This document shows, piece after piece, positions 7,736-63,839 of a DNA stretch of 64,000 nucleotides (position 1 is the stretch's first letter; the number at the start of each line of letters is the position of its first letter). This DNA comes from Henricia sp. BOLD:AAB3569 (lineage: Eukaryota > Echinodermata > Asteroidea > Spinulosida > Echinasteridae). The translations under genes were made by a program, and so were the position numbers. The stretch lies in contig JBBELK010000316.1 in the NCBI GenBank assembly GCA_037783545.1, positions 496,001-560,000 on the forward strand. The letters are read 5' to 3'. Under the pieces are notes generated by a model. That model was not told the DNA's origin and made no database searches. It was given only the letters and a program-made list of their open reading frames with translations.

Positions 7736-7785
7736 ATGTTGATCATATAGATTCAGCTTCTATCCACAAAAACCCACTTTTTTCT

Positions 7786-28100: not shown

Positions 28101-31100
28101 CGGTATAAGTCGATATTATCATTAAGAATATACTAGGCTTTGGCAAATTCTCTCTTATATTCATTAAAGTTTACCTTTTTATGTTGATGGTTTGTTCCAT
28201 TTTTGTATACAGGTTTATGAGCCACGGCATCTTCCATTCACTGGAATAGGGAAGGTAGTTGGTGCTGCAGCTGGAGGAACTATTTGTCAACTTGTTAATG
28301 GTAAGAAAGAAATTTTTTTTTTAGCTAGGCCTCTGACAACCGTAGTATTATGGTATAACCAGAGAATCATCTTAAATAGGACAGTGGCTTCACTGTACAC
28401 AGTTTTTCATTGTTTTCTCAGAACGTAGATGAGGTACTGAGCTGACTTATACACAGGTTGGTTTTTATCATACACATCCTCAATCACACATGGAGATAAC
28501 ACCATTTGCAATAGTTTTCTAATTCTTCAATCTATCTTTAACTATTACCAAATTTCCTTTGTCGCTTTATACAGATAGTGGAGATGTTTTCGTCTGGGGC
28601 TACGGCATTCTCGGCAAAGGACCCAAGCTAAGCGAAAGTCGATTTCCCGAGCTCATTCCACCAATACTTTTCGGACGAACTGAGTCTAAGCCGGATGTCA
28701 TGGTGACCCAGGTGCATTGTGGGTTGCAGCACTTTGCTGCCGTAACAAGTGAGTTATAGCAGGAACTGCATTGTCCCAAAATGTTAATACCAATACGTGT
28801 CTTTACGGTCCCCCACAATTCACTGCGCATGGTACATGGCGCAGTGCATGATGGGATACAAATCTAGTACACTCGCAGAAGCGCGCACTTTGTCCGGTAC
28901 ACAAGTGAATTGGATTCCGGAGGTGAGTGGAGTTCTCGGCCACTTCAAGTTTGTGTTTTTGACACAAATGTTAACTGGTAATATAGAGCTCAGATACAGA
29001 TTTAATATACTGTATATCTATTTTGGGATTATATCGGCGTCTAGGGGTGGAATATTTGAGATGACTGTCACGAAGTTGATGAATATGATAACGTGACACA
29101 ATGACCGTGCACAACGAAATGAGAGTCCCAAAAAGATGCTCACGCACTAGATTTGTATCCCATCATGCATTACCCATGTACCACGCGCAGTGAATTGTAG
29201 TGGAACCAACCGTAAAGGCACGTATAGACTAAAAAATCTTACTCAAAGATAGAAGATGTTCGAACTGTTCAATGCAATGATTCCGCCTGAGATATCTTTT
29301 TCTTGAAAACTTTTAGTGTTTTCTCAGAATGTAGATGAGGTACTGAGCTGACTTAGACACAGGTTGGTTTTAATCATACATGTCCTTAATCACCATGATC
29401 ACACATGGAAAAAATTGTATTGATTTTGGAGAATTCAGTAGTGTTAGAGTTAATCTCGAAAATCAGAAATGTTCACAGATTTAAGCCTAACTTACACAAT
29501 ATAAACATGATGACCGTAGAAAACTTCCCCTGAAATGGTTTTGTCTGAAGTGCTATAGTCTTTGAGAAATGAGTAAAACAATTAGTTTTCGTCTCATGAG
29601 ACGAAAATTCAACTCGCCCCAAAACCATTTCACCCAAGTGCCATTTCGCCCCAAATTACTTCGTCCAAACACTACATCGCCCAAATGCCACTTCGCGCCA
29701 AAACCACTTCGTGCACAGGCCGTGGTTCAGGGCGAAGTGGTTTTAGGGCGAAATGACTGCAAACCCTTTTTTGACTGTTTTCTCAAAAGTTAGACAAAGT
29801 ACGGAGCTGGTTTTTGCTCAGGTTGGTTTTAATCATGCATATCTTCAATCACACAGGGGGATAAAACTAACTATAACAGTTTACCAATCATGTATACTAT
29901 CTTTAAATTCGAGTGCAATTGCCAGAACCAAAAAATTTGCAAAGCTCTCAAGATATTGTGTTTAAAAAGTTCGCAGGACAGCAATTTAATGATACATTCC
30001 AGTTTTATTTTAAGGTGTTTTACAGTGATGTTACTGTACATGTGTTCTAAAGATTTCTACATGTATTGTCTATTTTTCCCCTCAGATACAGGAGATCTTT
30101 TTACCTGGGGAAAGAATGAAAATGGTCACCTTGGTCTTGGGACACTCAGCGACCAATTCTTTCCACTCAGGGTAAGCATGAAAACCGGCCAATTATAAGA
30201 ATAAACATAGAAACATATTTCTCATACTGCACCTATTAATTGTCCTCCCCCCCCCCCCCCCCCCCCCCCCCCCACCCCCCGCAGCTCAACAATCTAGGCA
30301 GTCCAAAACACCGCAGCCCGCATCGTTACACTCTCTAGAAAATCCTGTTCCATCTCCCCAATCCTGAAACAACTTCATTGGCTCCCTATCTCTCAACGAA
30401 TTATCTTCAAGCTTATGCTAATTGTCCACAAAGCACTCAATGGCAAGGCTCCCCATTACATCTCAGAACTTCTTCAAGTTTACACTCCGTCAAGGAACCT
30501 ACGATCCAGCAACATGCTTCTCCTCAAGGAATCCAAGTCTCGACACTCTTGGGGTGACAGAAGTTTTTCTGCAGCCGCACCACACATCTGGAACTCTCTA
30601 CCGCTTAATCTTAGATCTTGTCTCTGTACAACAAAATTCAAATCACTTCTTAAAACTTATCTCATGTCTCAGGTTTTCAAGGACTAATTTGGTTGTTCCT
30701 GTCATTTTTGATTGTTTCTTTCATGTTTAATATTACTTTGTTTGTTTTTTAGGGTCTCTGCGCCTTGAACACCCAGCAGGGTGGATATGTGCGCATTACA
30801 ATTACTATCAATGCTAGAATAGGGCGACAAATCGTGTGTAAAAAAGGTATATTAGGGCGACCTGCTCAATAGGGCGACATTTTGGTGTCGCCCTAATATT
30901 TTTGAGTTTAAAATTAATTTTTTTAGGTCAAAAACCATTTTTTTTAGGTCGAGAACCATTTTTATCGGGACTGGAGTTGTTTCTCTTCGGTCTGCGACCA
31001 TCTCCGGAAGCTTTGGGTAAAAAAATAAGGTGTCATTTTGAGTGACTCTTGCCTGAAATTTCGGTGGTCCCCGGTGAGAGTCTTGCCGAAATGTCGCCCC

Positions 31101-33257: not shown

Positions 33258-36200
33258 TCAGAATATTTCATCGGCGATTTGATCCCGTTGTTTCTGCTTA
33301 GCCTTGGCCCAGACACGGCGTTTCCCGTTATCGGAGTAAGGGTCTTCCGGCACGGCCATATCGGTGCTGTCAACCTCCTGAAATCGTTTCAGGCTTCTCT
33401 GGCGAAACGCAGCTGCGATAGACAAGGTACATTGATACAAGGAATTAAAGTCTATTTTTGCACAGCCACCAGTTTATTTGTATTTTGTTAAATGGATGTA
33501 GTTTGCCCATATATGATGTGGTATGTGCACTACGCCAAGTTCTTTTCCCCAAAAACAAAGTTTACAAAAATCTGTAGTGACCCTACTCACTTGTCAAGTC
33601 CGTGGACCGAACCGCAAAACATGGCAACTTACATGAAGTGTATTTATATGCAAAGTAATTTTTTTTTTTTTAAATGCTAAGATATATGATTAGAAAAATC
33701 AACTTTGATGTGCCATTTTTATAACAAATTTTGCTATTCTGGTGATATCCTGACAAATTGAACAAGCTTTTCGAAGGTTTCTTCCCCCTTCAAGAAAAAT
33801 TGATCACTGAGCTAAGCAAACTTACCGGCATTACGGACCGACAGTGAACGTAGCACAGCGCGACGAACAGACGAACTCTGATAACCGGGATTGCCTTCAT
33901 TATCTGCTTGGTACAAACTCGACCCAGCGTCACTGTCGTTTGAGACGACGGAGAGACGATCTGTGTCTTCTGTCAAATAAACATTGAGAAATCTTAAAGT
34001 ACAGTCTAAAACTAATTTGTCATTTTTCAAATAACTTTAATATCAAGTGAAATTCTTGCCTCATAAAAATGTAATTTGTAAAATTTGTAAGAAATAGTAA
34101 TAAACAACAGGATGATGGCTTTCCAAAAATTGTTCAGTTTATCGCGAGAAACTGTGTTCCAGGTCAAGAACACCATAAAGAATGTCAATTTTTTTGTATA
34201 CATGTATATACCATGACTAAGCAGTACCGTGGTAAAGCGTTTAGGTCTCTAACTTTTAAACTCCAAGTGGAAACCATTCAAGGTACTTTTACCCTTGAGC
34301 AAGGTACTTGACCCCAATTGCTCCATCCTTCGGATGGGATGTAAAGGTTTAGTTTGCTGTGCAATGCACTTAAAAGTTGCCAGGGCATTTGGTTGCAAAG
34401 AGAAGGGGATTCTTCCCGGCGTTTCAGGCTTGTCTGCTGAAGGCGCCACCCGACTATGTATCTCAATGTTTAGGCAATTCCTGATAGTTGTAAAGTGCAT
34501 TGAGATGTTAACAGACATAAATGCGCTATGTAAGAATAGCTGTAAGAACTAGTTATTTTTTATTAATTTTTGCAACCGACCAGAGGTCAAATTTACCTCT
34601 CTCCTCCCTATTGTTCTCCCAGCTGTAAACAGCTTCCATTCCCATCGCCTTGGCCTTTTCCCTCTCGTTCAGCCGAGCTCTCCGACCTTCCTTCTTTGTG
34701 TTTTCTTTCTCAAAGTTGGAGCGCCTCATGTTGGCCTTGGCCCATTTCCGACTTGCCTGCGAGAAAAGACCAAAAATTTGTAACCCTCAAAAAAGTGAAT
34801 GTGTGTATAAACCTTCACACAAAATCAAACATTTTGACCCCTGACCTCGTAAACACCAGCTGGTCGAGATTCCATGACTTTGTAAGTTGGGCCTCGCACT
34901 ATTTTCAAAGGGAAGTTCAGTCACTGGGTCCCTTTGGCTGTCTCACAATTGGCAGGAAAAATATCTGCTCCCTTAGGTTTGTGTACAATTTTTACCCGTC
35001 TTAAAAATGAAACAATCTTTTGAGTTTGATTTTAGTTTGGAGACAATTATATGCTTACCGATCGTCCCATTTCACTCGATTCTATTTGTTTAGCCGTGCG
35101 GTACACAGACAGTATCTTGGTCGCGTCTTGCAGAACTGCACGAGAAAACAGAAAAATAAGCCTTTTACATGAAGTAAGGAATTATTGCGTCGCAGAGATG
35201 CCAACATCTACGATTTTGGCGTAGTTTGTACAATTGTTTCAGCCAATGACGATCAGACACTGTTCATGTAGACGATTTAAAAAAAAAACTAAAATTTTGA
35301 GCTAAATTTCACACAACGAGCAGAATGTAGTGTGAAAGTTGTGTGAAATTTAGCTCAAAATTGTAGATTTTTATCGCCTGTTAACGACACAACAATGAAC
35401 CAACTCTATTCACTATTTATGTAAGTGGAACTTCCCCCTGCAGTTAAGCTTTTAAAGTTGGTAGAACCTGGTAGAACAGTGAAGAAATTTAAAGATGCAA
35501 GAAACCTGAGGTGTGAGCTGGTATTTTCAAGAGGTATTGGCAACTGAATTGTTACTAGTGCATGTTACACCGTGTTTACACTGGTCCCGAGCTCGGGATC
35601 AAGATTGATCCCCTGATAAGAATGCGTCGGTGTTAACCGCAATGATCCTGAGTGCCGTGTTTACATTTTGTAGTTGATCTCGAGCGCAGTGCCAGAAGTT
35701 GCAGTCAAAGGTCACGTGTATGTATGTACTAATCAATGTGTGCATGGGTTGTACATGTACAGTGTACAGGGCCACTTGAATTTCGTGGGCTTTCCCCCGC
35801 TACGGCTGTGGAGCAGATGCGGTTAAGATTAATTGCTTATCTAACCGCAAACTGATCCCAAGCTCGGGATCGAGCCCTCCACCAACGCGAGACCAAAATA
35901 TCGGGATCTGATCCGGGGCCAATTTGGTTCCGAGAGCGTTTACACTCAGTTTGTGATCCGGGGCTAATCCCCAGCTCGGTGTTCGACCCCGAGCTCGGGA
36001 TCAAGTGTAAACAGGGTGTTAGTTGACTCGGTGGTTTAAATGTAAAGATTTAAGAAGCATTTAAAGTGTGCTCTCTGCCAACTAGATGTAAGACAAAATT
36101 AGTTCTTCAACATAAAGCACTTGCTAATCAACTTTAAAAGCCTGCTTAGTGCTTAAAGCATTCGCAAGAAAATAGTTTGTTTCTAAAACACAAGAAAGTG

Positions 36201-39200
36201 GACATTTTTTGTTATAGCATTACTGTATACAAAATGTTTAACTTTTCATTGTGTGTTACATGTATATATATTCGGTAAACTGAAGGTGGAAATGGTTTTC
36301 ACAAAACGCCAAATTGCCTAAAGATTGTGATTCGACCTTCGTTTTAAAGTGGCAAAGCTTGGCATTGGAGTGTTATTTTTCTTTGCAAAAGCTTTCAGTT
36401 GAAAAGCAGCTGTTTTCTGTTAGGCTGAAGAAATACTGGGACAAGTCTCCATCACTTGATGAGAAGCTTGTGACTGCTATGCCACCATTGGCTACACTAG
36501 CTCCAGGTGATAGTCCAAAGTGGACCGTTTGGAAGTAGACTCTACGAGGTACACTACAAGCAGTTGTATTCAAATTTAACCTTACCTGATTCTAATATGT
36601 TGTCAGCATTCGAACCTATCAGTGCTTGGAATGCTAAAACCCCCAACATCAAACAAATCAAAGGTATTGAGAGAAGAGTTAACTCTATGGTGCCAATGAG
36701 GAAAACTTAAATGTGGGACGGAGGAAAGAAGGATACAATCTTTTCACACTCAAAATGTTTTAGTGATGCTCATGATTTTGAGGTATGGGGAAGGGGCATG
36801 GAAGGTCGTAACTTCAAGCAAAGGTCCACTTTAAGAAGACCTCCAGCTGACTTTTGGAAGACCTTCACCTCACATTTGGAAGACCCTCAACTGACTTTTG
36901 GGAGACTTTCACTAGCTTCTGAAAACCCCTAAAGTTTTAGAAACCTTCAACTGACTTTTAGAAAGCCCCTAACTTGCATTGAGAAAGCCCTCCAACTCAC
37001 TTTTGAAAGACCTTCAACTCACTTTTGAAAGACCTTCAACTCACTTTTGAAAGACCTTCAACTCACTTTTGAAAGACCTTCAACTCACTTTTTGGGTTAT
37101 CAAGTCTGAGGGCTGGTAGCACCACAATACTGATCCAGCAAGGAGTGTTCACGTCTTCCACAGCATCCTTGACGAAACTCAGAGACACGATGCACAGCTG
37201 CTTTAATCTCTTCCTGTCGATCTCGGACTGGTCTGACTTCTTGGCTTCCAGTGCGAGCTGGATCTTATACTCCCTGATGTCAAACACCTGAGTGTATGAA
37301 AATCACTGAATGATAAGGGAGGTCAACAATTAAGGCCTGGTAAGGTCTGGTCTGTAAATATGCAAGCTTGGCAAGAGCGTCTCTTGGGCCTTCAGTCTCA
37401 TTGTGATCTTAGACCCAAGCAGTAGATTCTCCAGGACTTTGGCTGGCTCGGTCGGCCCTACCGACGCCATTAACATCTCGATAATTTGTCATCTCATATT
37501 TGAAAGACTTCTTTTTTCCTGAAAACATTATTTTTTTCTGAAAAAAAAAACCGGTCTATAGTTGTCATTGGATAAAGATTGCACCTACTGAAAGTGACCA
37601 TCGGTCCTTAATCCTAAACAGGCTATGTATAATGCTAACTCAACTTCTGTGAATTGTCTAGTTTGGACAATCTCTTCGTAAACAGAAGGTTAATAACAGA
37701 GAGGATTTCTTGATCAACCTCCAGCTCTTTTGTGAAATTATTCTTCTGTTACGCGAAAATGCTGCCCCATGAACCATCTCCGGACTTATTTTGGCCAGCT
37801 TGGTGCATTTGACAAAGGAGACGAAGATTATCAGCCTTTTGTGTCTGACATGGCCAATTTTCCTTGTCACAAGGACAACCTCTCAGAACGTTTCACAAGT
37901 CCTACCTTCATCGGTTTATTGGTCTCAAGATGGCCCATCATCTCAATGGCGTCAGCCGAGATGCAATGGTTCTCCGGATCGAAGCATCCCTTAACGAAGA
38001 CTTCATTCTTCCCCAGCCGAGTGGCCCAGAGGTTGCCCTCCTTGTCCACTTCGATCTGGACCCCCTTACCGATGTGAGCTCGAACCTTCTCTGTTTGCTG
38101 ATCGCGGAGTGGGTTGTGCAGTGCTCCGAAACCTAGCCTAGAGCACAGAATTTGGAGGAGTAGTTTTTTGCGAACTTCGATATTATAGAAGCATTGACAA
38201 TCACAAGCATTGGGTTTATCTTCACATGTCGGTGGCCCACAGGGCAAGTTGAGATTGACGTTTATTGGTTCTCATAGCATTTTGGTGGCCCATACTTTAA
38301 AATTATGTTCTGTTCTCTAATATGTTGGCCTCAAAATGTTCTAGTTAAATAAAAGAAACGCAATTTCCTTAAAATATTGATTTCTTAAAATACCAATTCT
38401 TGATCAGTACAGAAGTTTGTTGAATACAATGAACTTGCGGATAACAAGGCACTGATCGACCAATCATGGAATCGCTTTCAAGGCTGCTCCGCTTCAGTGA
38501 TTTCGTCCAGGTCCAAGTGGGTCTGTTTCAAATGTGATATTTTTCCCCTAGGGGTTAAGGGTTCTCAGATAACCCATTTTGTTTTAAGCCTGATTAAACC
38601 TGTGTGGGATGGGCTGACCTCTGGAACCGTGCGTCTCTCAAGCCTAGAAGTACAGGAGTTCGTGGAGGCACTTCATCAGGCAGAGTGGCGCACCCTGCCT
38701 CAGTGACTCTTACAGAAGCTTGTGCAGTCGGGGTTGTCACAAAAGGTGTTCATACACATTACTGACTGATAAAATGTTAAGTCTCTCAGCCTTCTTAATC
38801 GTTTGGTCATAGTGGGCTATAATTTAATCGTACACGAAAACATGATTGCTACAGTTGCAGTAAAAGACGCAATTGAAAGTGACATCTCTAAGATGCCTAT
38901 AAAGCAAACCGTGTCCTTAAAAACGAACCTTCCTGGATACTGGAACTTTGAACCATCCACAATGACCGACGATGACTTGATGTTGAAGTCAACCAGACGA
39001 CACCTCTTCTCGAGAAAATAAACCTTGGCCCAGGCGTCCGGGTCGATCCTTGGCAGCTGGTATTCCAGCTCTTCAAGTAGCTCCTGGTCAATAAAAAGGT
39101 GACCAAAAGGATTTTGGTTCATTCCCCGGTTTATTGTGTTTTATAGCAGTTCTCTTTTGAAAAGTAAGTATGAATATGTTAATTGTTGGGATGATGACCC

Positions 39201-42200
39201 ATGAACCGCGCTTTTACACCTGAAAAGGCTCACGGTGAATCCACCATATGCGCGTTCGCGTCTCCAGCTACGTGCTTGCATCCCATTGGTCTACAGTGCT
39301 GAAAGAGCTGCGTGCGTAAATGCATTGCGCAGACAAGTGACACACCCAAACTGGTACCTGTTTTCGCGATCATAACTGCAACCATGTTTCTGACATAATT
39401 CGTGATTTAACAAAACAACCCCTGACCTCTTCAATGCGGCTGTTCCTGACTGGTATCTGTGTCCGTTCCGTGCCTGCACCATTCACGCCGGGAACTGGTA
39501 CCCCGTAGGAGTATCTCTTGGGAGCCGTGGGAGGCGGAACTTTCTTTCGTTCTGTCTGTTCAACAATCAGTCGTTGCCTTTCGTCCGTTTTGACTCGCAG
39601 CTCGCCCAGAAGCATCTGTTGGGGAAAAAATACAGTAAGTCCGACGCTTGTTTATCCACCTCTAGCAACTGGGGTATTTCTCGTGCCTTAAAGCAGCTTC
39701 GTTCGATGTTAAATATCTACCATCGTCGGCAACCGTGGCCCTTCACGGTATTAGCTTTAACCTTGTAATTTATTATCAACTAAAAGGAGATGCAGTTTTA
39801 GAAGTGGGAGGAAAACCTCCAGAAAAATCTCCTGGGGGAAAACCCACGCGGTCAAGTAGGGACTTATCCTTATCTCGGTTGTTTACGAAGTACAGGGTAA
39901 AAATTGAAAAGTTGACCACAACAATATGTTCCTTAAAATGACTTCTCCAGCATTCAGTAAAAGGAATTTTGATGGAAAACCCAGATTTAGAAGTGAAAAA
40001 AAAAACGTCCTAAGGAAAAAACACTTGGAAATGTTGTGTTTTGTACACGAGGTTTGAAGCAATGGTCAACTATAGGCCTACATACATGCACCTAATTAGC
40101 ATTCTGCGTATAACATTTGCACAATGGCTGACGCCCCGAATTCATTACCTCTAAATGGAGGTGCAATTCACAAAGGTCCCCATACTATGTTATTGTTGCT
40201 ACGTGGTGCATGCCATTGCTTAGTAGTCAGTAGCCTTGTTGCTTTATGCCATTCTCTCCTACTGTAAACACGGGTATATTGATTCTGTACTTCACACCTG
40301 CCGCGCGTGCACCCGGCCACATTACACAGCAACAAAAATTTAGTCTGGTCGTATGGATACTAAGAGTGCATGTTAAAAAAAAGTACATCAGTACATCAGA
40401 TGCTATTCGTGTGAATCACGCAAAAAGCCGTTTGTCAAAATGTCCATGCTTACTTACTTACGTTGTGTGCTGGTTTGGGATGCATTCTCACAAAATACTG
40501 GTCGATTTTTGTCAAAGTACGCAACCATGCACCAATATCGCTCGACGCTAAATGATTTGAACGCCCCTGTTACATCGCTTTAAAGAGATCGGCTCTCAGT
40601 CAACTCTACGCGTCTCCATGGGAACCGAAATGACGTCATCGAGTGGGAAGGCCCCTCGGTAGAGGAAACTGAGTCATTACATTGATTTAAGGACCATGCT
40701 CTCATCACCTCGAGTCTCTCAAATTGTGTCAAATTCCCCCTTGGCCACGGTGGAACGTTCCACTTTACTACATACACCTTACTGCTCCTGCAAGCCACAG
40801 CGTTCTGATGGAAGGCGAACTGTTGAACTACGTAATACAGTGACCGATTTGGAAACGGGATGTATAAAAATAGCCTTTCTATTAAAAAGGTAATACAATA
40901 CTGTATGTACAACTTAGGTAGATGGGTGTGGGCCGCGGAGTGCACAAACCTTTGTTATCCTCAGAACAACTTGGTCAACTACCTCCATGGTTTTGTATGC
41001 TCGGAGCTGATTTTAATATTTCTTTAATGTCTCGAGGTTTTAATTAACCTCGCTCCCTAAAACAATTTGACACATGTCCAACATGAATGCCAAACATAGT
41101 ATGAGTTAATTGTGTGTCATCTTCCATCGGGTATTTAAGATATGCCGATTCCCATGCCGTTTCGCTGCATGCACCCACATACTTCCGTCGAACCTATAGA
41201 GTGGGTGCCCTAATTCGTCACTGCACACTGAGAATTCAATTTATCTCTTCCGGTCGAACGATTTCAGGGACGAACTAGTTTCCTTTAAATGTCCACAAAT
41301 TTTAATAAACCTTTACTCAAGTTGAAGATAGAAGTGGTTTTATGTATGTAAACTGTCCAATGCAGTGATTTTATCCGGCGATATTTTTTTATAAGAAAAT
41401 GAATAATTAAAATGAATTTATATATATATGTGTATGCACACGCATTTTGTTACAATAGCGCCCTCATGTGAACGAAACTGGGTCCCTGACTACCGTGGTA
41501 TTATGACTAAGTTTTCTGTGCAGTATATCAAGGGAACCAGTCTAAATAGGACGGTGGCGTTGAACAATTTCTTGAAAGCATTGACACCGTTTTTTATTGT
41601 TTTCTCAGAACGTAGATGAGGTACTGAGCTGACTTATACACAGGTTGGTTTTTATCATACACATCCTCAATCACACGTGAAGATAACGCCGTTTGTAACC
41701 GTTTTCCAATCCTGTAATCTTTAATAAGAGAAAGTGTACCAACCTGTCTCTTCTTGGCTTCAAACTTCTCCTTATCCAACCTGTCCAATTTGGCCATGGC
41801 CCTGAAGATTTTCTCGTTGTAAATCTCGACCTCTTCCAGAAACTCCGTTAACGCACCGCGTTGCTTCCAGCCCTTCTCCCGGATGGATCGCGTGAATCTA
41901 CGGCCCAGCCTACCGCGCACGAGCCGCTGACAAGTCACCACGTACGTTAGGAGCTGGTCTAGGCGAGTGTCGAGTTTCTCCGAGTGCCAGTACTTGAGAA
42001 ATACCTAAATGAGCGGAGGAGTTTTTAAAAAAGGTGGGTGGGTTGAGTAACTTGGCAATATTGAGAAGCAATATACTTCAGGGGCCTGTTTTCGCGTCCA
42101 TAATCAGAAAGATGTTTCTGACGTCATCACTGATTAAACCAATGACGAGCTTTGATCGTCGGCAACCAATGCCATTTATTTGTTGAATCAGAAAATACGC

Positions 42201-45200
42201 CAGAAATATGTTTCCAGTTAAGGTCGCAAAAACACGCTCTATATGTGTTATATGGGTGGGTTTAATCGCCACTTTTGAGAGTTAAATTGGAGCCATCTTA
42301 TTGGTGCACCAAAGTGCATAGCGCGTGTCAGGAATGCGCGCACGCGCATCGCTCCACCAATGAGATGTTAGCATTTTAAGCGCCAAATAACACTATCCAA
42401 ATACATGTCCCTTATCGTCTGCGAACTAAATATCGACAGTGTTAAAGTTCTGCAAAATGTTTATGCACAAAATGCACATAAAATCAGGTATACATGTACG
42501 TACCTGGCAAAAAGTTCATGTTTAAGTACGAACGTGCAGAAAAGCAGACATGGTTGAAAAGCTCTAAATTCTGCATTTTTGAACCATCCTTTTATAGTTT
42601 TAAGCGGGTTTTAAACGGACTTTGCAAAATCATTATTTTCAACACAATACGTTAGTTTGCGGTTAAAAGCGTGGGCCGCGTTTCTAAAAATAAAACCGGT
42701 AATACGTCAGTAAACAATCTGCAACATACAGCAAGTCCAAATACAAGTTACTTTTATTTTTAGGATGTCATTTCTCTGATAGATTCCCAGGGCACTATGT
42801 GTGTTATAGGGTGACCGCGGGGTTAGAGTGAGGTCAGTTTGGTCCCTGGTTTCAGCAAGCGTTTGAGCGATCATAATTTTAGTTATTCCTCGATTTTTTG
42901 ATGACATGAAACAATGTGAAAGGTAACGTTCATTTTTCTGAAAAGCATTTTTTTAAAGTTCACAAGTAATCTGGTACATGGGGCTAGTATGTAGATTGGT
43001 TCCCGATCCCTATAGATTGGTTCGCTTATTGCGAAAATATAGGGATCGCTAAAGGGCAGCCATGACGGGCAGAATTCTGCCCGTCACGTGGTTATTAATA
43101 TTTATTTATTTTTTGTAAGTGCGCAGATTTTGCATTGACATTGGTAACTTGGCCGTGCGTGTCGAACATATCCAATTATGTAAATAAACCACAGTGCCTA
43201 AAGCAAAGGGCTTGGCCAATTTTTAAATATAAAAAACACAATGCGCACGCGCAAAGACGACCAATTACAGATCAAGATGAAGCGCCCTTTACCTGTCCTT
43301 ATATTCTCCTGTGTGGAATATGTGGACGGGAACCAGTCTAGCTAGTATGTGGCTATTTGTCCTGGGAATGAGGTTAATTGGCTGTTTTGCAGGTGAGTTG
43401 AACTGACGTAACAGTGACGCAAGTACAAGCTTCGATGAGGCCATAACAATTAACCAAAATTATTGGAGAAAATAAGTCGTGACGTTGGTGCAGTTATCAG
43501 TTTTATTAAGAGCTAAACACAGAAGACGCAATAGACGCTTTGCACGGGCAGCCATGACAGGGGCCAGTCACATTGTCACCGTGCGTCACGCACGAGTACG
43601 CACTTTGTGGATTTATTGTCGCATCATTTAAATATGAAAACCTGCCCAGAGAGATGTTTAGCGAAATCAGATAGGCATACCAAACAAAACAACTCTCTGC
43701 GCTTAGCAAACATCGGCAGAGTATATTATTGATACAAATGACATTAGCTGGTTACTTGTTATTTCTAACCATTTTTTTTTGTGCTCAGCATAGCACGGGC
43801 TTGTTTTCGCGACCAATAAAAACTATTCCCCATCGTTAGAGAAACTGGCAGCTTTTGTGCGAATCTTTGCACAGCAATCTTTGCACAGCAGGATTAGGCC
43901 TACCTAATTTGGAACAACGTGTTCTGGAAAGCATCGTAATCTCCCATATCCCGTGCGCTCAAGAGACACGTCATCCTATAATTATATAACGAACATCGCA
44001 GCGAACTTTGAGCAAAATTAACACAATTTGTTTTCGATTTTCATTCACGTCACGCGAAATCGTGGACGAAAACAAGGACCCTGAAAACAAAATGAATGAC
44101 GTCATCATGACGTGATTTCATTTATTGCAAGCATGTACCAAAATATGCATGAACTTAGCACGTGATTCTAACAAATTTGGGGACAAAACAAAACAAATAT
44201 GCAAAACTTTTATTTAAACAGTCGTTTAATAACACAAGGCCTACTGTAGTGAATGGAAATTATTCTACGAATGTTTCTCAGTAATCAACCATTTTCCGTC
44301 TTACCTTCGTTTTGCCGATCTCAAATTCAGTCAAACCCGCCGATTGCAATATCTTCTTGCACGACGCTGCGTTCGCTTTGACAGGGGTTGTCAACGGAAT
44401 TCCGATAAACTTGTATCTAATGCAAAGTAAAATAGTCACATTATCCAAACGTCAATTTCCAATATCCTAAAAAAAATTGTCAAACATTTGGCGGGAAAAA
44501 CTTTACTCAAATGATTCCGCCTGGGATATCTTCTCATAAGAAAACGAAAATTAAAGATGGATTTATATAAATGCATGTGCACAAGCATTTGTTTACAAGG
44601 GCGCCCTCATGTAAACGAACCCTTGTTTACCGTAGCCTTATGGCCACGTGGTGGTCAGCCGACGGCCAGGTGACGGCCATGTGATGGTCATGTTATTGTC
44701 TCGCAGTGTGCTATGCCCATGCGACAGTCATGCCTTTGTGACGGCCTCGATCGGACGCAGCGCTGCTTCTTCACCACCAAGACCTACCTCCTAAGGAAAT
44801 CAGCAAACAGCAGTCTCGAAGGAAACCCCATCCGTCGAATCTTGATGGTCTCCAAGACTCCCGTGTACTGAAGTTGCCTCTGTACGAGACGGTCGTCGAA
44901 GCAGTCGTTGCGGCTCTGACTGTTGGGTTTCAGGCAACGGATGAACTGAGGCTCTGCACCCAGGAGTTTAGCCATTAGGCCCGTTAGTGAGCTCTGCCGG
45001 GAAACCACGAGAGACTTTACATTCTTCTCTTTAATTGTCGGGAGTCAAGGAAAGCATGAAGTCATTTAAATTGTCTCTATTTTTTATTTAAATTGAAAAA
45101 GGAAGTTATGTTACCTTGAAGTGCGAGCCGATGGACGGCATTGTTGCGCGTCGTTTTCCTTTGTCGCTTTGTTGCAACTTGCCGTCCTTCATCCTGCAAA

Positions 45201-48200
45201 ATCAATGAAAATAAATTTGTTAAAATACACCAAATAAAATGTCAATACGTTGCTAATTGCTGCAAAATTCATCACAAAAAAAGTTCGTCTGAAATATTGG
45301 TAACAATTAGTCTGGTTAATTAACGAGACATTCACTCACTGTTTCTTGAGTTTCTTGGTTGCAGCGCGAGACAGACTGACCGTCCCGTCGTGGATAATCT
45401 TTGGCGGCGGTTTGCAGAGAAGAATGTCTTTTTGGCTTTGCGGCACGGCGTACGGACCCGACTGAGTGCTAGAAAAGGATGAAAGAAACGTTTGTTGATA
45501 CAGCGAACTTGTGAATATCAAGGCACCGATCGACCAAACACTTTGGATTCGCTTTCAGAGATTTCGTCCAGTTTCGTCCAGACCCGTTTGTCAAGAATTC
45601 CCACAGTAATTTTCTGTTTCTGTGAGAATTATACAGCTAAGGGCTCTCGGAAAACCACTATTGTTGGCTTCTTAGCAACCTGAATGTGCATGCGTGGGCT
45701 GAGCTGACCACTGCATCCGCATGGAGCCAGAGCAGGAGTTTTGGGTGGTACTTCAGGCAGAGTGGCGCATCCTACCTCAGCGGCTTATATACAGAAGCTG
45801 TTGCAGTCAGCCTTGCCACAAGAGGTGGTCCTACCAATACAAGTATGCTATATCTCTCAGCCTCCTCGGTCTTTCGGTCAGAGTACATCTTCCTTTTCTT
45901 TCTTTTTTAAGTGTATATTTTAATTGCAGTTTCGCTTATTCTTGCCGTCAAAAATTGCTTTTAGTCGGGTGATTTCGGATCCTGTTTTGTGACTTTAAAG
46001 ACAGTTCATTGGGAATGGAACTCACGTTTCTAAAAGCTCATCCTCAGTAGCACTGAAGAGATATCTGAGTAGGCCGTTTTGGCTGTTCAGCATGCTGTTG
46101 GTCAGATTGGCGCTAAAAGTGTCTCGGTTCTTCTCCAGAAAACATCGGGCGTCGTACCAAAGCTTAAAACAAGAAAATAACAATGGTGCTTTAGTATTCA
46201 TTACCGAGTAAAGGATAGTTGGAATTTCGGGACGACATAAACATTTGGCTGTTCTGATTGGCTCAGATGGTAGAACACTGCCCGTTTAGAGCTATCTCAT
46301 TGGTTGAAAAAAATCCAACATGGCTACCCGATGCCCGACCATCCAGGGTGCACCACACTTGATAATGGCCAGATCCTTTCGTCCAGCTCATTAATTTTTG
46401 GACACCTTCTTAGGCAGATGGAACAGGGTCGTGTTCTTGCTGTCAGAACCAGAACCATGTTTGTCAGTGACAGTCACGATCAGCCATGCAGTGGTTACGT
46501 TATAAGTGTGTTTCTGGTCATGAACGCTTAAACGCGATCCGGCATATCTAATAATAAATTCACATATAAATGTTACTCACTTCCCCGGCGTAGTGCTTGA
46601 TACCAAACTTGGTCTGTCCCTTCGATTTCTTGTCTTTGAGGAAGTTACTGTTCTTGCCGTGATTACTGGTGAGTTTGTGCACAAAGGTGACGTCAGTTGC
46701 CTGCGGAAAGCGGCATTCCTCGTCAAGAATTGAGAATATCCCAAGAGGCTTCTGTAGAAGATACGGTTTTCAAATTTCTGCTGAGTAATGACTGTAAATT
46801 TTAAATATTTAATTGTGTGGCTACATTCTGCAAGAAACATGTATTATCATGATTTTGCTTGAAATTGCCTCGTAGCTCAGCTGGTAGAGCATCTGCCCAG
46901 TGTGTCAGTCTGAGAGGTCTTGGTGAAAACCTGAGGGAGTATACCTCTGTGGCTTTTAGCTTATCTGGTAGAGATTCCGCCTGGTGTGTCTGAGGTCTTG
47001 GGGAAAACCTGAGGGGAATATACCACTGTGCCTCATAGCTCAGCTGGTGGAACATCTGCTCGCGTCAGAGGTCTGGGGGAAACCTGGGGGAGTATACCAC
47101 TGTGCCTCATAGCTCAGCTGGTAGAGCAGCTGCCTGGTGTGTCAGAGGTCTCAGAGAAAACCTGAGGGAGTATACCACTGTGCCTCATAGCTCAGCTGGT
47201 AGAGCAGCTGCCTGGTGTGTCAGAGGTCTCAGAGAAAACCTGAGGGAGTATACCACTGTGCCTCGTAGTTCAGCTGGTAGAGCATCTGCCTGGTGTGTCA
47301 GAGATCTTGGGGGAACCTGAGGGAGTATACCACTGTGCTTCATAGCTCAGCTGGTAGAGCAGCTGCCTGGTGTGTCAGAGGTCTAAGAGAAAACCTGAGG
47401 GAGTATACCACTGTGCCTCATAGCTCAGCTGGTACAGCATCTGCCTGGTGTGTCAGAGGTCTCAGAGAAAACATGAGGGAGTATACCACTGTGCCTCATA
47501 GCTCAGCTGGTAGATCATCTGCCTGGTGTGTCAGAGGTCTTGGGGGAACCTGAGGGAGTATACCACTGTGCTTCATAGCTCAGCTGGTACAGCATCTACC
47601 CGGTGTGCATTGTCAGAGGTCTTATAGAAAAACCTGAGGGAGTATACCTCCCCGCCTAGTTCAGCTGGTAGAGCATTTGCCTGGTGTGTCGGAGATCTTG
47701 GGGAAAACATTAGGGATTCAGGCGAAATCAGTGCACCGGACAGTTGGAACCATTGCTATCTTCCATTTGAATAAAGTTTCTTTGGCCGAATAATTGGTTT
47801 AAATTTCGGGACATTGCAATTTTTGTGAACGGACTCTTACTGCAAGAAAAAGATCCAGTACGGGCTGGTTATCCAGGAACTTGATCTTAGCGTGTGAGAC
47901 CCCCTCGGTGGCGTACTCGGCCAGCTCCCAAGCGAAGATTCGCTGGTTGAAGAAATACTGTAGCTGTTCGTTGGTAACGTTAATACAGAGCTGCTCGAAG
48001 CTGTTCGTCTCGAAACTCTCAAATCCGTAAATGTCTAGGATGCCAATCTCGTAACCGGGCGTGCCTCTGCGAAGAAAAGTCAACAGACTGAACCTTTTGC
48101 GGTAACATTTCAGGGGAGGATTTGGCTTTGGGTTAAGGGTGAGGTTGTGGCTGCTACTGTGTGCCTAAAATACGCCCCCGGAAAATTTGGAAATGTTTGT

Positions 48201-51200
48201 GCTTTCTCCCGAAAAGTAAATTGGTTTGGGCTGATGGTAAATGTAAAATTGTGTGTTTGGGCGACTAGCTTACCCCTGTAGATGTGGATCGGGAGCAATG
48301 AGCGTGTTGACTTGTCGCACAATCCACGTGAACAGTTTGCTGTATAGCGCTTTGGCTAGCGCGTCTCTCCCGTCATTGGCTTGTGCAACGGTCTTCAGTG
48401 TTAGAATCTGTTCGCCTGAAGAAACCAAAAGGTAAATCGAAAAACGGGTTCTCTTATAAATCGCCGAATGTGTGCGACCTTGTACATTTGCACCTTGTAT
48501 ATCTTCAATATCGTGTTCTCATAAAAAGATAAATCTCATGCGAAATCATTGCATTGGACAGTAGGAATTATCTTCCAAAAGGTTTTTCGGCTTCTACACT
48601 CCTATGTACCTGTCCATTCGCGAATGGGATTTTCGCATTAAAAATTAAACAAAATGTCTACCTCTTGTGTAGTTCACGTTGGACACGAGCGCTGTTGCCA
48701 TTTCTACAACGTCTAAGCCGAGAAGGTTGCACACTATGCGAGAGAAAAAAAATACAATTTTATGGCAAGTATATAGTTTTTATGTGGAGACGCAATATCA
48801 TGCATACCACACGCGTAAACATTTGTGTTAATCAGGACATCTCATTGGTCGAACGTGTGCGTGCGCGCTATGCGTAATCATAGTACGCGCAACGCGCAAA
48901 TTGCACCAATGACAAGATTCCTTTGCAGTAAGTTCAAAAAGCCCTATTCATACTTTACGCAAACGCAAATTTGACCTCACAGCGAAGATGCCACACCGCA
49001 ATTTTGCAGAAAGTTGAACTTGCGCAAATCTTCGCCGCGAAATATTTGACGTCAGATTTACGTCAGATTATGAACCGGGAGATTAACCGGGTCAGATTAA
49101 GTATGAACCGGGCTGACGCCAACTTAAATGCTGACGAACTGTTTATTCTAAATTGACACAAATTGCAGTCCGTATATATTGTTGTAAAGCAAACAATAAT
49201 TGTGAGATGTCGATTCTCCAAAATATTTTCCACTTACCAACTTTGAGGATATATTCGTCCACGATGTACGAACCGCCTGTTTCTTCGTCAAAGTCAAAAT
49301 CGATGTCGGCTATTTGAATAATCGCCGACAAAATCGTGAAAACCATCCAAATATCCTGTGACAGATTACAAAAGTGTAATAAGTTACCTTTGGCACGTTC
49401 AAATTGAAACCCAATAAAATGGGTTTTCTGATCGGTTCGTAACTAACTACAAGATTCTCCCAGAAACGGAAAATGTTACATTTATTTTAGTACTGTTTGA
49501 ATCACTTTGTTCAAACAGGTCCTCTTGGACCTGGAGGAAATCACTGAAGCGGACTGTCTTGAAAGAGATAACAAAGTGCCTTGTTCTGATCAAATTGATA
49601 TTTATTTGATTTTTTTGGGGGGTTGGGGGAAGTATATATTAATACCTCTTGTGTAAATCCGACCAGTTCCATGGTGTCTTGCAATTCATCGTACATTTTC
49701 TGATTGAACAGAAACTCTTCTTCGCTGGCATAAACACCCTGACCTTGAATTGCGTTCAAAATCCTGCAGGTTTCAAAACAAACAAAAATGCAATTAACGA
49801 CACATTACAGAATTGGAAAACGGTTACGAGCGACGTTATCTCCATGTTTGATTGAATATTTGCATATTTATTGTTTTCAGTCAGACGGGTGATTAAAATT
49901 TGGGGGCTTTATTTAACGTTTTAATTTTCGAACGTACCTATGTTTTTCAGGGGGTGACAACAGAAGATTCAACAGCTGCTGTTCCGTCAATCCGGCGAAC
50001 ATGTAATAGAAGATATGAAAGTTCCTCTCGCCTCTGCCCTGGCTTACGACGCGGGACTTTTCTAGCAGATACTGGTCGATTTTTGCTGCAAATTAGAGAG
50101 AAAAAGCAAAATAGAAGTCTGTGACTTTTTTTGCTTATGGTCAAAGTGTTTTTCAGGTACGCTATGTCGTTTACATAGTTCTTATGAGCGATACAGTTTT
50201 GCAGTTAATGAATTTGGCTTTAGGGGAAAATAAACCATTTACGTACCGCCCACTATTCTGCCGTCGTGGTTGAATTTCAGTTCGATAAATTTGCCGAACC
50301 GACTCGAGTTGTCGTTCATAACAGTTCGTGCATTTCCGAACGCTTCCAGCAGAGGATTGACCTGGAAGAAAGAAAAAGCTGCCTTGGAAAGATGTTTTCT
50401 TAAAATAAATCCACAAACGAGTAAATTCTAAACTTAAATAGGTCTAACGTATATTTATGCATATTTATAAGTTATAAAGATTATGTGATCAGATTTCTTT
50501 TGGAACATATCACCTTTGACCTCATTCAACAACATTTATGCAAATTACAGGTGTCAACAGAGGGCGCTTTAGATACCTGCAGAATCTTCTCCTGTAGGTT
50601 CTTCTTTTGGCTGTTGCAGTGGCTGATCACGTGACCAATCAGGTACTTGGCGCTCTCTGTTTTGCCGGCTCCTGATTCGCCGCTGATGACGCAACATTGG
50701 CGCATGCCCAGTCGCTTCATGCTGCTGTAAGCCTTATCTGCTACGGCAAATATATGCGGTGGCAATGCTTGCCGGTATTGGAGATTTGTGTACGAACATG
50801 ATGTCTGGGGAAAGAAATTTGTTAAAATCATCGAGGTTATTTTGCAATTAATAAGAAAACGAGTAAATTCTGTAAAAAAATGGAGAATTCAGAAAGTCTT
50901 ACCTGATAGGAATAAATCGACAGAGGCTTGTACGGATTCACAGCAATTAGAATGTCACCAATGTACGTCTGTAGAATGAAAAAGAAATGTTTCAAAAACA
51001 AAATCATTTTTGTCATTCTTCACCCACTAGTTTTCGGGTAAAATGGTGGCGCCCATATTACAAGGCATCGATGCAATTGCCATTCTTTGTTAACTTCATA
51101 TCCGTTTTTCATTGCAATCGACTCTTTTTGTTCTTTGTATAGCAATAATGTACGGGTTGCACTTGTTTGACACTATATATTTTGTTTATTGAGTATATAC

Positions 51201-51492
51201 ATTTTCTTAATAATGTGTCAAAATGTTTCTAAAATTTGAAGGGAACATGGTAGCCAAATGGAACTATACACACAAGTGAGTAATTTCAAGACTAGGTAAA
51301 TAATTCAAGCAAAACGTTCAATATAATATTTACAATATATAATACTGCATCGATTTGTGATGTGAAACTATGAAACTACAAATTTCTTACGTAAATGACA
51401 TCGTTGGAGTATCGTTTTCTAAGTTCTTCCATGATGGCCGTTTCATCCAGCGCTTCCAATGTCGCCAGGTCATCCACAAGAGCCACCGGCAT
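33258..51492 (-). CDS. Unconventional myosin with a C-terminal MH2 domain
   Basis: Twenty-five exons join in one frame (1253 residues from Met at 51492): 51391-51492, 50903-50968, 50577-50804, 50247-50361, 49938-50085, 49646-49763, 49238-49355, 48662-48733, 48274-48415, 47841-48066, 46581-46751, 46026-46162, 45340-45468, 45115-45193, 44788-45014, 44305-44416, 41744-42004, 39427-39615, 38929-39083, 37906-38137, 37089-37287, 35059-35135, 34597-34756, 33826-33969, 33258-33412 (TGA). Motor: P-loop GESGAGKT (98-105), switch [11 protein letters not shown] (148-157), DALAK (340-344), switch II DIYGFE (381-386), Lys-rich loop 2 (about 548-617), RCLKPN (643-648). One IQ-like motif [13 protein letters not shown] (755-767). 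MH2-like region (898-1075): W898, VDG, HIGKGV (953-958), [14 protein letters not shown] (1057-1061). A basic tail follows and lacks the R-SMAD SSxS end. Class unassigned. Upstream exons are possible. Confidence 0.92.
34214..34545 (+). mobile_element. SINE with GAGCAAGGTACTTGACC body
   Basis: A degenerate tRNA-like head precedes TTGAGCAAGGTACTTGACCC, CCATCCTTCGGATGGGATGT and a tail ATGCGCTATGTAAGAA. The body is related to the SINE at 58053-58433. Intronic. Confidence 0.65.
35280..35380. mobile_element. Short hairpin
   Basis: AAAATTTTGAGCTAAATTTC with GAAATTTAGCTCAAAATT, plus TTGTGTGAAA/TTTCACACAA. Intronic. Confidence 0.7.
35568..36018. mobile_element. ~450 bp MITE with TTA target duplication
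   Basis: CACCGTGTTTACACTGGTCC and its diverged inverse GTGTAAACAGGGTG are flanked by TTA at 35565-35567 and 36019-36021. Subterminal GAGCTCGGGATC blocks pair. A 3-bp TTA duplication is typical of PIF/Harbinger, so that superfamily is the best guess. Confidence 0.75.
36830..37088. repeat. 22 bp minisatellite carrying 5' splice-site motifs
   Basis: CTTTTGAAAGACCTTCAACT-type units become degenerate leftward of about 36990. Four perfect 22-bp steps give five copies of CAACTCAC (36993, 37015, 37037, 37059, 37081). On the minus strand each reads GTGAGTTG, and the last is the donor of the myosin exon ending at 37089. Confidence 0.85.
38400..38815 (+). mobile_element. Tc1/mariner-like transposase remnant
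   Basis: The frame reads [16 protein letters not shown], then [14 protein letters not shown], like the end of Tc1 transposases (W-EL, EW--IPQ). Flanking sequence (AAGGCACTGATCGACCAA) matches 45485-45905. It is short and has a stop, so it is dead. Confidence 0.5.
39616..41743. other. Myosin intron with dispersed repeats
   Basis: It holds a copy (40190-40395) of the body of the element at 9210-9420 and, at 41540-41730, a copy of the GTAGATGAGGTACTGAGCTG block. Otherwise I see nothing. Confidence 0.5.
42005..44304. other. Myosin intron
   Basis: It contains a MITE copy at 43530-43650 (AATAGACGCTTTGCACGGGC family) with a lost right end. I see no nested gene. Confidence 0.5.
44510..44640. mobile_element. 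Fragment of a dispersed MITE
   Basis: The ATTCCGCCTGGGATATCTTC block followed by ACAAGGGCGCCCTCATG recurs near 41380-41470, 54030-54115, 62575-62670 and 63890-63915. Confidence 0.5.
45485..45905 (+). mobile_element. Tc1/mariner-like transposase remnant
   Basis: The frames contain [15 protein letters not shown] and, shifted, RGGPTN, as at the C-terminus of Tc1-type transposases. It is homologous to 38400-38815, and in inverse orientation to 55940-56400. Confidence 0.55.
46868..47715 (+). repeat. tRNA-like tandem array, about eleven units
   Basis: Units of about 78 bp start near 46868, 46951, 47030, 47105, 47183, 47261, 47338, 47416, 47494, 47572 and 47656. All have the A-box half and none has a clear B box. 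The array fills most of the myosin intron between 46751 and 47841 and lies antisense to that gene. Confidence 0.85.
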
Positions 51493-51603: not shown

Positions 51604-51775
51604 ATTGAAGGGTGTATCCCTCTGTAGGGCTTGCTAAGCTCACGTGATTCCCAATCAGTGAGGAACAACTGCACTACCGTGATTCGAGACCACCAGTTGG
51701 CTTCATAGCTCAATTGGTAGGGCGTCTGCACGTTAAGCAGAAGGTATCGGGTTCGAGTCCCGATGGAGCCAAGTT
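51604..51775 (+). repeat. Element with a well-folded tRNA-like segment
   Basis: 51699-51770 folds as a full cloverleaf: acceptor GGCTTCA/TGGAGCC, D stem GCTC/GGGC, anticodon stem TCTGC/GCAGA, T stem TCGGG/CCCGA, and GTT in the anticodon place. The base before the anticodon is C, not the near-universal T, and there is no gap between repeat and tRNA. It shares about 95 bp of 5' flank with the copy at 8968, so it belongs to a mobile repeat. Confidence 0.7.
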
Positions 51776-61668: not shown

Positions 61669-63763
61669 TCAAGTAATTCTGGTATTTACACTGACTCCAG
61701 CAGTTTCCAGTTCCTTGATAATGCCATCTTTCTGTGAAAACGAAACACGGATACGTTGCTAAAGCAAATCTGCCTAAGTCTTGTATACAAGATTTGCAAT
61801 GTCTCAAAATTCCAGTGGGCTGAAAAACTTTACCGAGTAAAACCCTAAAACATGAAAGGAATGGATGTTTGACACAATGGGGCACAATGGAAGGGGAGTC
61901 ACTCGGTGTTATATCAGGCAGCATGTATCGTGTCCAATGCATAGTTCCGATACTGCCCAGTTAACCCCGCCCCCTTGGATATTGTTGCTATGGCTCACAC
62001 GCTATCCCTCAAAATGGCGACACACAACGCACAAAGCAATGGGACTTTCAACGGAAAGCACAGATTCATTGGAGAAAACTGAAAGGTATTCATGTTTCAG
62101 GGTCGACAGTTATCTTAGAACACACCGAGTAAAGGGCCAGTAATACCGGGAAGACAAATCATGAAATACGTGCTTTCGTACCTTTTGAACATGCTTTGAA
62201 CATGCTTTGAACAACGAAACGACCGGCCTTGAAACCAAACATTCACCCGGAACATCGCATACAACACTGTACAAATTGTATGGGGCAGAACATCGCGTGA
62301 TATGTTGTTGCAAACATTGCACTTTGACCTATGTGGGTGATCTCTGCTAGCTCTGTTGTGATTGGTCGGCGGGTTCGGTTGATTGACAGGTCGGAACTAT
62401 GCATTCACCACTTGCATTCAAAACGAGGCTTTCTTGGCATACGTCGTATTTTACAATGGACAAAAGTCAACGTCACAGCAACCGACATGGTAACGATACG
62501 AGGGAGTCATTGTTCATGCAAGGAAAGCCTCCCTGTTTTGCCAATATGGCGGTTCCATGCAAGTGGTGAATGCAATGATTTCACCCGAGGTTGTTTTTCA
62601 TTTTGTGAAAAAATGATTTGAGGATGAATTGATATAAATGCGTGCGCACACATTGTTTTACAAGGGCGCCCTCATGGTATTATGACTCCGTTTTCCGAGC
62701 AATAGAGCTTCTGCACCAGCGACCATGACAGGGGCAGGTTTTCTTATTTAAATGATGTAACAATAGAACCACAAAGCACCTACTCATGCATGACACACTG
62801 TGACAATGTGACTGCCCCCTGTCATGGCCGCCGTGCAAAGGCTCTATACAGCTGGGGAACAAGTCTAGGACGGTGCCTTTGCACAATTTCTTAAAAGCAA
62901 GGGGACAGTTTTTCATTGTTTTCTCAGAACGTATGAGGTGCTGAGCTGACTTATACACAGGTTGGTTTTTATCATACACACCCTTAATCACACATGGAGA
63001 TACAACGCCGTTTGTAACCGTTTCCTTGTCTTGTAAGTTACCTTGTGCAGTGTGGTCTGAAGTCTTTGAACCATTTCATTGAGCATGCGTATTCGCTTAT
63101 CAGCGTCCGTTTCACTTTCTTCACCGTCTTTCATAGTAGAGAACATCCTGCCTTTTGGATGAACGTCATTCCGTGCTCTCAGCTCAAAAATAAATAAATT
63201 CATTCATTCATTAAATAAATAAAAGAATCAAAAGAGAAGTCACATTAATCAAATTTACGATTGCGAATTCAATATGCGTATTACCATTAATACGTGTATA
63301 GGCCTACATACATGGAGATGTCTTCCATGTTGTCATTGGTATCCAGCTCTTTAATGTTTATTTTATGAGAAATGAGCTACTGGTTACCAGTGTGGCTACA
63401 TACCCAAATTATGGGCCTCGGAGTGCTGTAGTGGGAACGTCACTCTGTGTGTAAATTACTCAGGTTAATGTGTCTATACTAAAACTAGCGAACCGTTTCC
63501 TCGCACATTAGCAATTTACATCTCAGATATCCAGCGAATATTCAGACCAATTGCCCTGACAACTTGCGTCACACCATATTTTTCTTGATCGTTAACAAAA
63601 TAATTGGTGAATACCTTGGGAACGAATACCAAACACAGCGCTACAGTTGTGGCGAAGAAGATAAAAACAGACACGATGACGTAACGGGCATCGACATCAT
63701 CGAGAACCAGCGAAACGGGAACCACTATGAATGACAAGATGACTGTGTTGTATACACTCATAC
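61669..63763 (-). CDS. GABA-B-like class C receptor, C-terminal exons
   Basis: Three exons join in phase: 63615-63763, 63042-63182 and 61669-61731 (TGA). The first encodes GMSVYNTVILSFIVVPVSLV and then FIFFATTVALCLVFVPK, which are transmembrane helices 6-7 with the VFVPK end typical of GABA-B receptors. The second is polar (LRARNDVHPKGRM) and then a heptad-like stretch IRMLNEMVQRLQTTLHK, likely the start of the coiled coil that pairs GABA-B subunits. The third adds KDGIIKELETAGVSVNTRIT. Earlier exons (ligand-binding domain, helices 1-5) lie beyond 64000. The tail is shorter than in vertebrate GABBR1/2, so the subunit type is not assigned. An orphan GPR156-like receptor is an alternative. Confidence 0.8.
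61732..62574. other. Receptor intron, no other gene seen
   Basis: Several short ORFs but no protein similarity that I recognise. Confidence 0.4.
62575..63040. mobile_element. Cluster of MITE pieces
   Basis: 62575-62670 has the CAAGGGCGCCCTCATG block, 62699-62848 is an AATAGAGC...GGCTCTAT element of the 25845 family, and 62900-63010 has the GAGGTGCTGAGCTGACTTAT block. All are in the receptor intron, and the last one ends just before the exon at 63042. Confidence 0.6.
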
Positions 63764-63839
63764 CTGCAAGATTTAATACAAACATTTTACAATGATTTAC
63801 AATGTCCCAAACTTTCAATCGACCATTTAACCCAAACAA

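What the first reader, a model, noticed from the sequence alone, without database searches (positions are those of the whole stretch)
33258..51492. Myosin motor fused to a SMAD-type MH2 domain
Twenty-five coding exons on the minus strand join without a phase conflict, from a complete motor ([24 protein letters not shown]) through one IQ-like motif to an MH2-like region. That region has W898, VDG, HIGKGV, a CIVSLSFVK block and TPCWI, in the order seen in SMAD MH2 domains. MH2 domains bind phosphoserine partners and form trimers in TGF-beta signalling. Attached to a motor it could act as a cargo or signalling adaptor. The R-SMAD SSxS end is absent and about 180 basic residues follow. I do not know of a well described MH2-tailed myosin.
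Basis: partly seen in the sequence, partly recalled or inferred. Interest (0 to 1): 0.93.

Follow-up and report, generated by a model that had tools for sequence, protein, structure and literature searches.

The report
Sea-star myosin with MH2 tail
This is a real starfish gene for a myosin motor protein carrying an MH2 tail, a kind already on record as class-80 myosins, and the tail looks more like the fly protein Expansion than like the SMAD signalling proteins, which changes what it probably does.

The parts
33258..51492 (-). whole coding span of the MH2-tailed myosin gene, 25 exons, 1246 aa
51391..51492 (-). exon 1, start codon, residues 1-34; motor match starts at residue 6
50903..50968 (-). 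exon 2, motor
50577..50804 (-). exon 3, motor, P-loop GESGAGKT (residue 98)
50247..50361 (-). exon 4, motor, switch 1 [10 protein letters not shown] (148)
49938..50085 (-). exon 5, motor
49646..49763 (-). exon 6, motor
49238..49355 (-). exon 7, motor
48662..48733 (-). exon 8, motor
48274..48415 (-). exon 9, motor, TEDS position E324 near its start (rule recalled)
47841..48066 (-). exon 10, motor, switch 2 DIYGFE (381)
46581..46751 (-). exon 11, motor
46026..46162 (-). exon 12, motor
45340..45468 (-). exon 13, long loop 2 (label recalled)
45115..45193 (-). exon 14, lysine-rich loop 2 (label recalled)
44788..44993 (-). exon 15, motor; acceptor chosen by agreement with relatives (alternative 45026)
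44305..44416 (-). exon 16, motor, near its end
41744..42004 (-). exon 17, end of motor, IQ-like motif by eye ([15 protein letters not shown]), start of linker
   Evidence: no IQ family in the Pfam scan
39427..39615 (-). exon 18, linker and start of the predicted N-alpha helix (residues about 870-885)
   Evidence: helix position carried over from the Patiria model
38929..39083 (-). exon 19, rest of predicted N-alpha helix and first part of MH2 (W891, VDG 915)
37906..38137 (-). exon 20, MH2 (HIGKGV 946)
37089..37287 (-). exon 21, MH2 end (SLSFVK, short L3 loop [12 protein letters not shown] 1050)
35059..35135 (-). exon 22, post-MH2 tail
34597..34756 (-). exon 23, tail with first WA-K/R motif (SRKWAK, W1099)
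33826..33969 (-). exon 24, tail
33258..33412 (-). exon 25, tail end with second WA-K/R motif (RRVWAK, W1230) and stop codon

Best explanation
The gene is a starfish class-80 myosin. Shown: a motor intact by its motifs, a linker, an MH2-fold domain, and a tail with two conserved WA-K/R motifs. Supported by sequence scores, loop length and predicted fold: the domain is of the N-alpha-MH2 kind known from Drosophila Expansion and Rebuf rather than the SMAD kind. Inferred: the N-alpha helix and the short L3 loop keep it from forming SMAD-type trimers or reading phospho-SxS ends, so it acts as a monomeric docking module outside TGF-beta signalling. The motor would carry or hold this module at actin-rich cell edges (microvilli, filopodia, apical membrane), where it gathers a membrane or secretion partner, much as Expansion, with its own targeting motif in place of a motor, influences the arrangement of chitin synthase at the apical membrane.
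Against: Raw identity does not separate the two: the window MH2 is 30.6% identical to Expansion but 34.8% to the SMAD4 pieces. The N-alpha stretch is poorly conserved: 0 of 20 positions invariant in 11 proteins, identity to the window 30-95%. Its sequence match to the fly is weak (shuffle P 0.012 for the window, 0.005 for the mean), and one of two SMAD upstream stretches scores as well against the fly (8.0; myosin mean 7.6). AlphaFold may have learnt the Expansion structure; its packing was not inspected; the model is of a relative's piece, not of the window's spliced protein. With one Expansion sequence the tree cannot say which of Expansion, SMAD and myosin branched first. Short L3 could be the old state rather than a tie to Expansion. 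No expression or localisation data were seen. In flies no physical contact of Reb and chitin synthase was found, so even the model for the mechanism is indirect.
Confidence: 0.62

Rival explanations
1. A SMAD-type MH2 on a motor: it binds phosphorylated SMADs or receptors and links actin transport to TGF-beta or BMP signalling.
For: Pfam MH2; identity to the SMAD4 pieces of 34.8% is a little above that to Expansion; SMAD4 is the runner-up.
Against: L3 loop 7 residues against 13, predicted N-alpha helix, no MH1 in the scan, no SSxS end, lower scores than Expansion by sequence and fold. The fly relative takes no part in TGF-beta signalling (PMC4388265).
Confidence: 0.13
2. A carrier of a polysaccharide synthase (chitin or hyaluronan type) to the apical membrane, the same job done in other animals by Expansion plus chitin synthase or by class-36 myosins with a fused chitin synthase. 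(A special case of the best explanation, not exclusive of it.)
For: Expansion and Rebuf are needed for chitin synthase output. Lophotrochozoan MH2 myosins, polyphyletic in motor trees, are sister to or group with class-36 chitin-synthase myosins. MH2 match to Expansion.
Against: No synthase was looked for in this genome (genome search did not complete). No physical contact of Reb with chitin synthase was found in flies. I recall little chitin in starfish.
Confidence: 0.2
3. Two neighbouring genes wrongly joined: a short myosin and a separate MH2 protein.
For: Introns of about 2.3 and 2.1 kb lie on the two sides of exon 17.
Against: Phases fit across all 25 exons; the same joined protein in 10 relatives, one on a 4.7 kb contig.
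Confidence: 0.02

Closest known systems
Class-80 myosins (Kollmar and Muhlhausen 2017, PMC5583752, passages seen)
   Same: Myosin motor with a C-terminal MH2 domain; known from echinoderms and hemichordates; the S. purpuratus relative P0008 has the same layout.
   Different: Nothing shown to differ. Reference class-80 sequences were not held, so motor phylogeny was not tested.
MH2-tailed myosin III-like proteins of S. rosetta and O. carmela (Sebe-Pedros 2014, PMC3942036, passages seen)
   Same: C-terminal MH2 on a myosin; the authors suggest MH2 first arose on myosins.
   Different: Sequences not at hand, so not compared.
Expansion and Rebuf (Drosophila N-alpha-MH2 proteins; PDB 4r9p)
   Same: Best match of the MH2 core by score and fold, helix predicted ahead of MH2, short L3 loop, longer H2 stretch.
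   Different: Expansion has no motor and its MH2 is N-terminal. Its paper calls the proteins protostome-only. CM2 motif not tested.
SMAD proteins
   Same: MH2 fold, order of conserved blocks, 25-35% identity to the window in 7 rows.
   Different: Here no MH1 and no SSxS end; L3 loop six residues shorter.
Class-3 and class-36 myosins
   Same: NCBI names the relatives myosin-IIIb-like or IIIa-like; published trees place lophotrochozoan MH2 myosins near class 36.
   Different: No kinase (class 3) and no chitin synthase tail (class 36) in the scan. Among solved structures the motor is closest to myosins VIIa, X and XV (best 60 of 149 rows shown).

Membership tests
class-80 myosin | myosin motor with MH2 domain at the C-terminal side | tested here: met
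   Myosin_head 706 bits, MH2 99.6 bits
class-80 myosin | found in Ambulacraria | tested here: met
   window protein groups with three starfish, support 100/100 in a tree of 11; source species not named to me
class-80 myosin | motor groups with class-80 motors in a wide myosin tree | not testable with these tools
   no reference set of other myosin classes held
class-3 myosin | N-terminal protein kinase domain | tested here: not met
   motor match starts at residue 6, no kinase family in the scan
class-36 myosin | chitin synthase tail with transmembrane segments | tested here: not met
   no chitin synthase family in the scan; transmembrane segments not scanned
SMAD | MH1 DNA-binding domain | tested here: not met
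SMAD | 13-residue L3 loop between FVK and TPCW | tested here: not met
   7 residues in 11 of 11 myosins; 13 in 7 of 7 SMADs
SMAD | C-terminal SSxS (R-SMADs) | tested here: not met
   protein ends ADEIF
SMAD | MH2 trimer on phosphorylation | not testable with these tools
   needs biochemistry
N-alpha-MH2 domain (Expansion type) | helix before MH2 that packs on the trimer face | tested here: inconclusive
   helix predicted and aligned to 4r9p from chain residue 32; packing not inspected; 0 of 20 positions invariant and sequence match weak
N-alpha-MH2 domain (Expansion type) | L3 loop shortened | tested here: met
   7 residues, same as Expansion
N-alpha-MH2 domain (Expansion type) | closest by sequence score and fold to Expansion | tested here: met
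   raw identity favours SMAD4 slightly
N-alpha-MH2 domain (Expansion type) | monomer in solution | not testable with these tools
   needs purified protein
Expansion/Rebuf protein family | CM2 apical-targeting motif | not tested
   full-length Expansion sequence not held
Expansion/Rebuf protein family | N-terminal MH2 without motor | tested here: not met
   MH2 follows a motor

The most novel reading that the evidence does not exclude
The motor-borne MH2 is the missing middle of the MH2 family. It scores closer to both Expansion and SMAD4 than those do to each other, so N-alpha-MH2 is an old animal domain first carried by a myosin, later freed from the motor in protostomes as Expansion and joined to MH1 to make SMADs. 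Class-80 myosins would then still do the original job: moving a secretion or polysaccharide-synthase complex to the apical membrane.
Probability: 0.2. Interest if true: 0.8.

Novelty: new member of a known kind. Interest (0 to 1): 0.48.

Why it matters
MH2-tailed myosins have been listed since 2014, and my searches showed no functional study. Reading their tail as Expansion-like gives a concrete hypothesis (apical membrane secretion rather than TGF-beta signalling), places an Expansion-like MH2 in deuterostomes although the Expansion paper called Expansion proteins protostome-only, and offers a testable route for how MH2, and so SMAD signalling, arose.

Tried and rejected
Rejected: chance or artefact (Pfam E 3e-28, 10 near-full-length relatives); two fused gene models; SMAD-type trimer and phosphoserine reading.

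Led nowhere: a profile of MH2 plus tail from 6 of the 11 proteins found only two SMADs among 7992 candidates, and the third protein search, from the crinoid relative, gave 12 rows, 11 named as echinoderms and one unnamed. So no mollusc, annelid, hemichordate, sponge or choanoflagellate MH2 myosin could be compared. The first structure job, on the 748-residue P0012, was poor (pLDDT 41) and is not used. The linker has no solved relative (one row, E 0.9). The MH2 tree of 19 rows sets 7 SMADs apart from 11 myosins plus Expansion at 100/100, but Expansion sits on a branch of 2.94, drawn inside the starfish rows, and an unrooted tree of three groups cannot say which two are sisters. P0001 (one exon), P0012 (partial) and P0015 (truncated MH2) were left out of the 11-protein counts. 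SMAD7 was left out of the tree and loop counts because its letters were not printed; its 22.9 bits lie below chance-like matches to designed Pizza proteins (up to 29.0). The SMAD4 row comes from chain 1g88, titled a mutant in the L3 arginine; its loop length equals that of the other SMAD4 chain printed, 1ygs.

Paper searches: myosin with MH2 domain, 50 papers, 20 listed; expansion, MH2, chitin synthase, 7; expansion, MH2, smad, N-terminal domain, Drosophila, crystal structure, 7, 6 listed; class-80 myosin, 1; myosin, MH2, choanoflagellate, Smad, 1; myosin IIIb with echinoderm, 0; chitin synthase, echinoderm, myosin, 13, 12 listed; rebuf, myosin, MH2, 0. The word myosin occurs 0 times in PMC9894549, PMC4305360, PMC4388265 and PMC6176944, and CG13188 0 times in PMC3942036. 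Papers were seen as passages, some with outline and abstract, and sections 16 and 22 of PMC4388265; none was read whole.

Results against my reading: identity to SMAD4 pieces (34.8%) is above that to Expansion (30.6%); the N-alpha stretch has 0 of 20 invariant positions and its sequence does not tell SMAD from myosin.

Full report
What is there. The minus strand from 51492 to 33258 holds a single gene. Twenty-five exons, all 24 introns GT-AG, join without an inner stop into 1246 residues. Exon 15 has two usable acceptors; I took 44993 because it matches the relatives. P-loop, switch 1 and switch 2 are intact; the TEDS position is E324 (rule recalled). The scan, run to E 1, lists no kinase, MH1, MyTH4, FERM, chitin synthase or IQ family; the IQ-like motif in exon 17 is by eye. 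Among solved structures the motor is nearest to myosins VIIa, X and XV.

It is conserved as one protein. Ten are 1218-1323 residues long; P0012 is partial. By source name they come from starfish, brittle star, sea urchins, crinoid and sea cucumber; P0010 has no name. P0010 encodes 1234 residues on a contig of 4700 bases, which can only be a spliced or intronless copy, so motor and MH2 share a transcript there (inference). The window protein is 88.3% identical to Patiria, 87.7% to Acanthaster and 84.7% to Asterias, and falls beside the first two at 90/92: the window is, by this, starfish DNA from a species other than these. Motor and MH2 are kept better than linker and tail (invariant in 11 proteins: motor 289 of 662, MH2 75 of 178, linker 10 of 133, tail 19 of 180, N-alpha stretch 0 of 20).

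It is a known kind. Sebe-Pedros and colleagues reported a choanoflagellate and a sponge myosin with C-terminal MH2 in 2014 and proposed that MH2 first appeared on myosins (PMC3942036, passages). Kollmar and Muhlhausen named class 80 in 2017 for MH2-tailed myosins of echinoderms and hemichordates, with lophotrochozoan relatives that are polyphyletic and sit by the class-36 chitin-synthase myosins (PMC5583752, passages). A search for the words class-80 myosin gives only that paper.

What kind of MH2. Against solved structures the MH2 region matches Drosophila Expansion best (90.2 bits, E 1e-24), then SMAD4 (57 bits). To take away any help from the N-terminal helix I built a profile from the MH2 core of 9 of the 11 myosins: Expansion 97.6 bits over the whole core, SMAD4 67.2, SMAD1 56.1, SMAD2 47.3, SMAD7 22.9. 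The reverse search agrees: with the fly core as query, the 11 myosins score 62.5-83.6 bits and the 7 SMADs 9.7-29.1; with SMAD4 or SMAD1 as query the myosins come after the other SMADs and before Expansion. So by score the myosin MH2 lies between the two. Raw identity tells less: 30.6% to Expansion, 34.8% to the SMAD4 pieces, and 21.8% between those two.

What follows. The Expansion paper argues that this helix lies on the SMAD trimer face, that the L3 loop is changed, reports that the protein elutes as a monomer and that Expansion takes no part in TGF-beta signalling (PMC4388265, passages and two sections). It also states that Expansion proteins are restricted to protostomes and that only SMADs and Expansion carry MH2 domains; MH2 myosins contradict the second statement, and on my reading they carry the domain type, though not the Expansion protein, beyond protostomes. 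In flies, Expansion and Rebuf are needed for chitin synthase to move chitin out of the cell; the MH2 part is needed for that step, and another motif helps bring the protein to the apical membrane; no physical contact with the synthase was found (PMC9894549, PMC4305360, passages). In the class-80 myosin the motor could supply the localisation. That is my proposed mechanism; no step of it was tested in echinoderms.

Limits. Only one Expansion sequence was available, none from molluscs or annelids, and no non-echinoderm MH2 myosin. The own-genome search did not complete (ten tries). AlphaFold may know the Expansion fold from training. The family tree cannot be rooted.

Surroundings. C-type lectin open frames lie on the left (three scanned), an RNase PH exon on the plus strand at 55.5 kb, and a tRNA-Asn gene lies about 200 bases upstream of the myosin start codon on the other strand. 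Twenty flanking open frames were scanned against Pfam out of 265 of 55 or more codons listed. I see no bearing of these on the myosin.

Noticed in passing
window 36827-37092: A 22-base tandem array begins exactly at the exon 21 donor, so the splice site AAA|GTGAGT is repeated five times at 22-base steps (6 copies on the minus strand of the window in all). Use of a later copy would change the frame except for the fourth.
   Followed up: partly
window 46866-47716 (intron 10), also 1-456, 9900-10092, 10789-10957: Tandem repeats of 77-81 bases whose unit looks like a tRNA front half (TAGCTCAGCTGGTAGAGC), perhaps a tRNA-derived element turned satellite.
   Followed up: no
window 1917-2444 (-), 3835-4398 (-), 7726-8229 (+); 5571-6113 (-) alike by eye: Cluster of C-type lectin open frames (Lectin_C E 2e-20 to 9e-18 for the three scanned).
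   Followed up: partly
window 55492-55851 (+): Exon with an RNase PH domain (E 7e-17), a separate gene on the other strand upstream of the myosin.
   Followed up: no
window 51698-51772 (+): tRNA-Asn gene about 200 bases upstream of the myosin start codon, on the opposite strand.
   Followed up: no
myosin residues 1099 and 1230 (exons 23 and 25): A motif W-A-K/R preceded by basic residues occurs once near each end of the post-MH2 tail in 11 of 11 proteins; role unknown, perhaps a repeated docking site.
   Followed up: partly
window 29833-30195 (+) and 63519-63848 (-): An RCC1 repeat and the end of a 7tm_3 receptor (the latter below Pfam's cut-off).
   Followed up: no
P0005-P0009 (5 of 11 relatives): Their precomputed domain lists also hold IRF-3 PF10401; the window scores 24.1 bits, below its cut-off of 27. 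A hint of deep MH2-IRF kinship.
   Followed up: no
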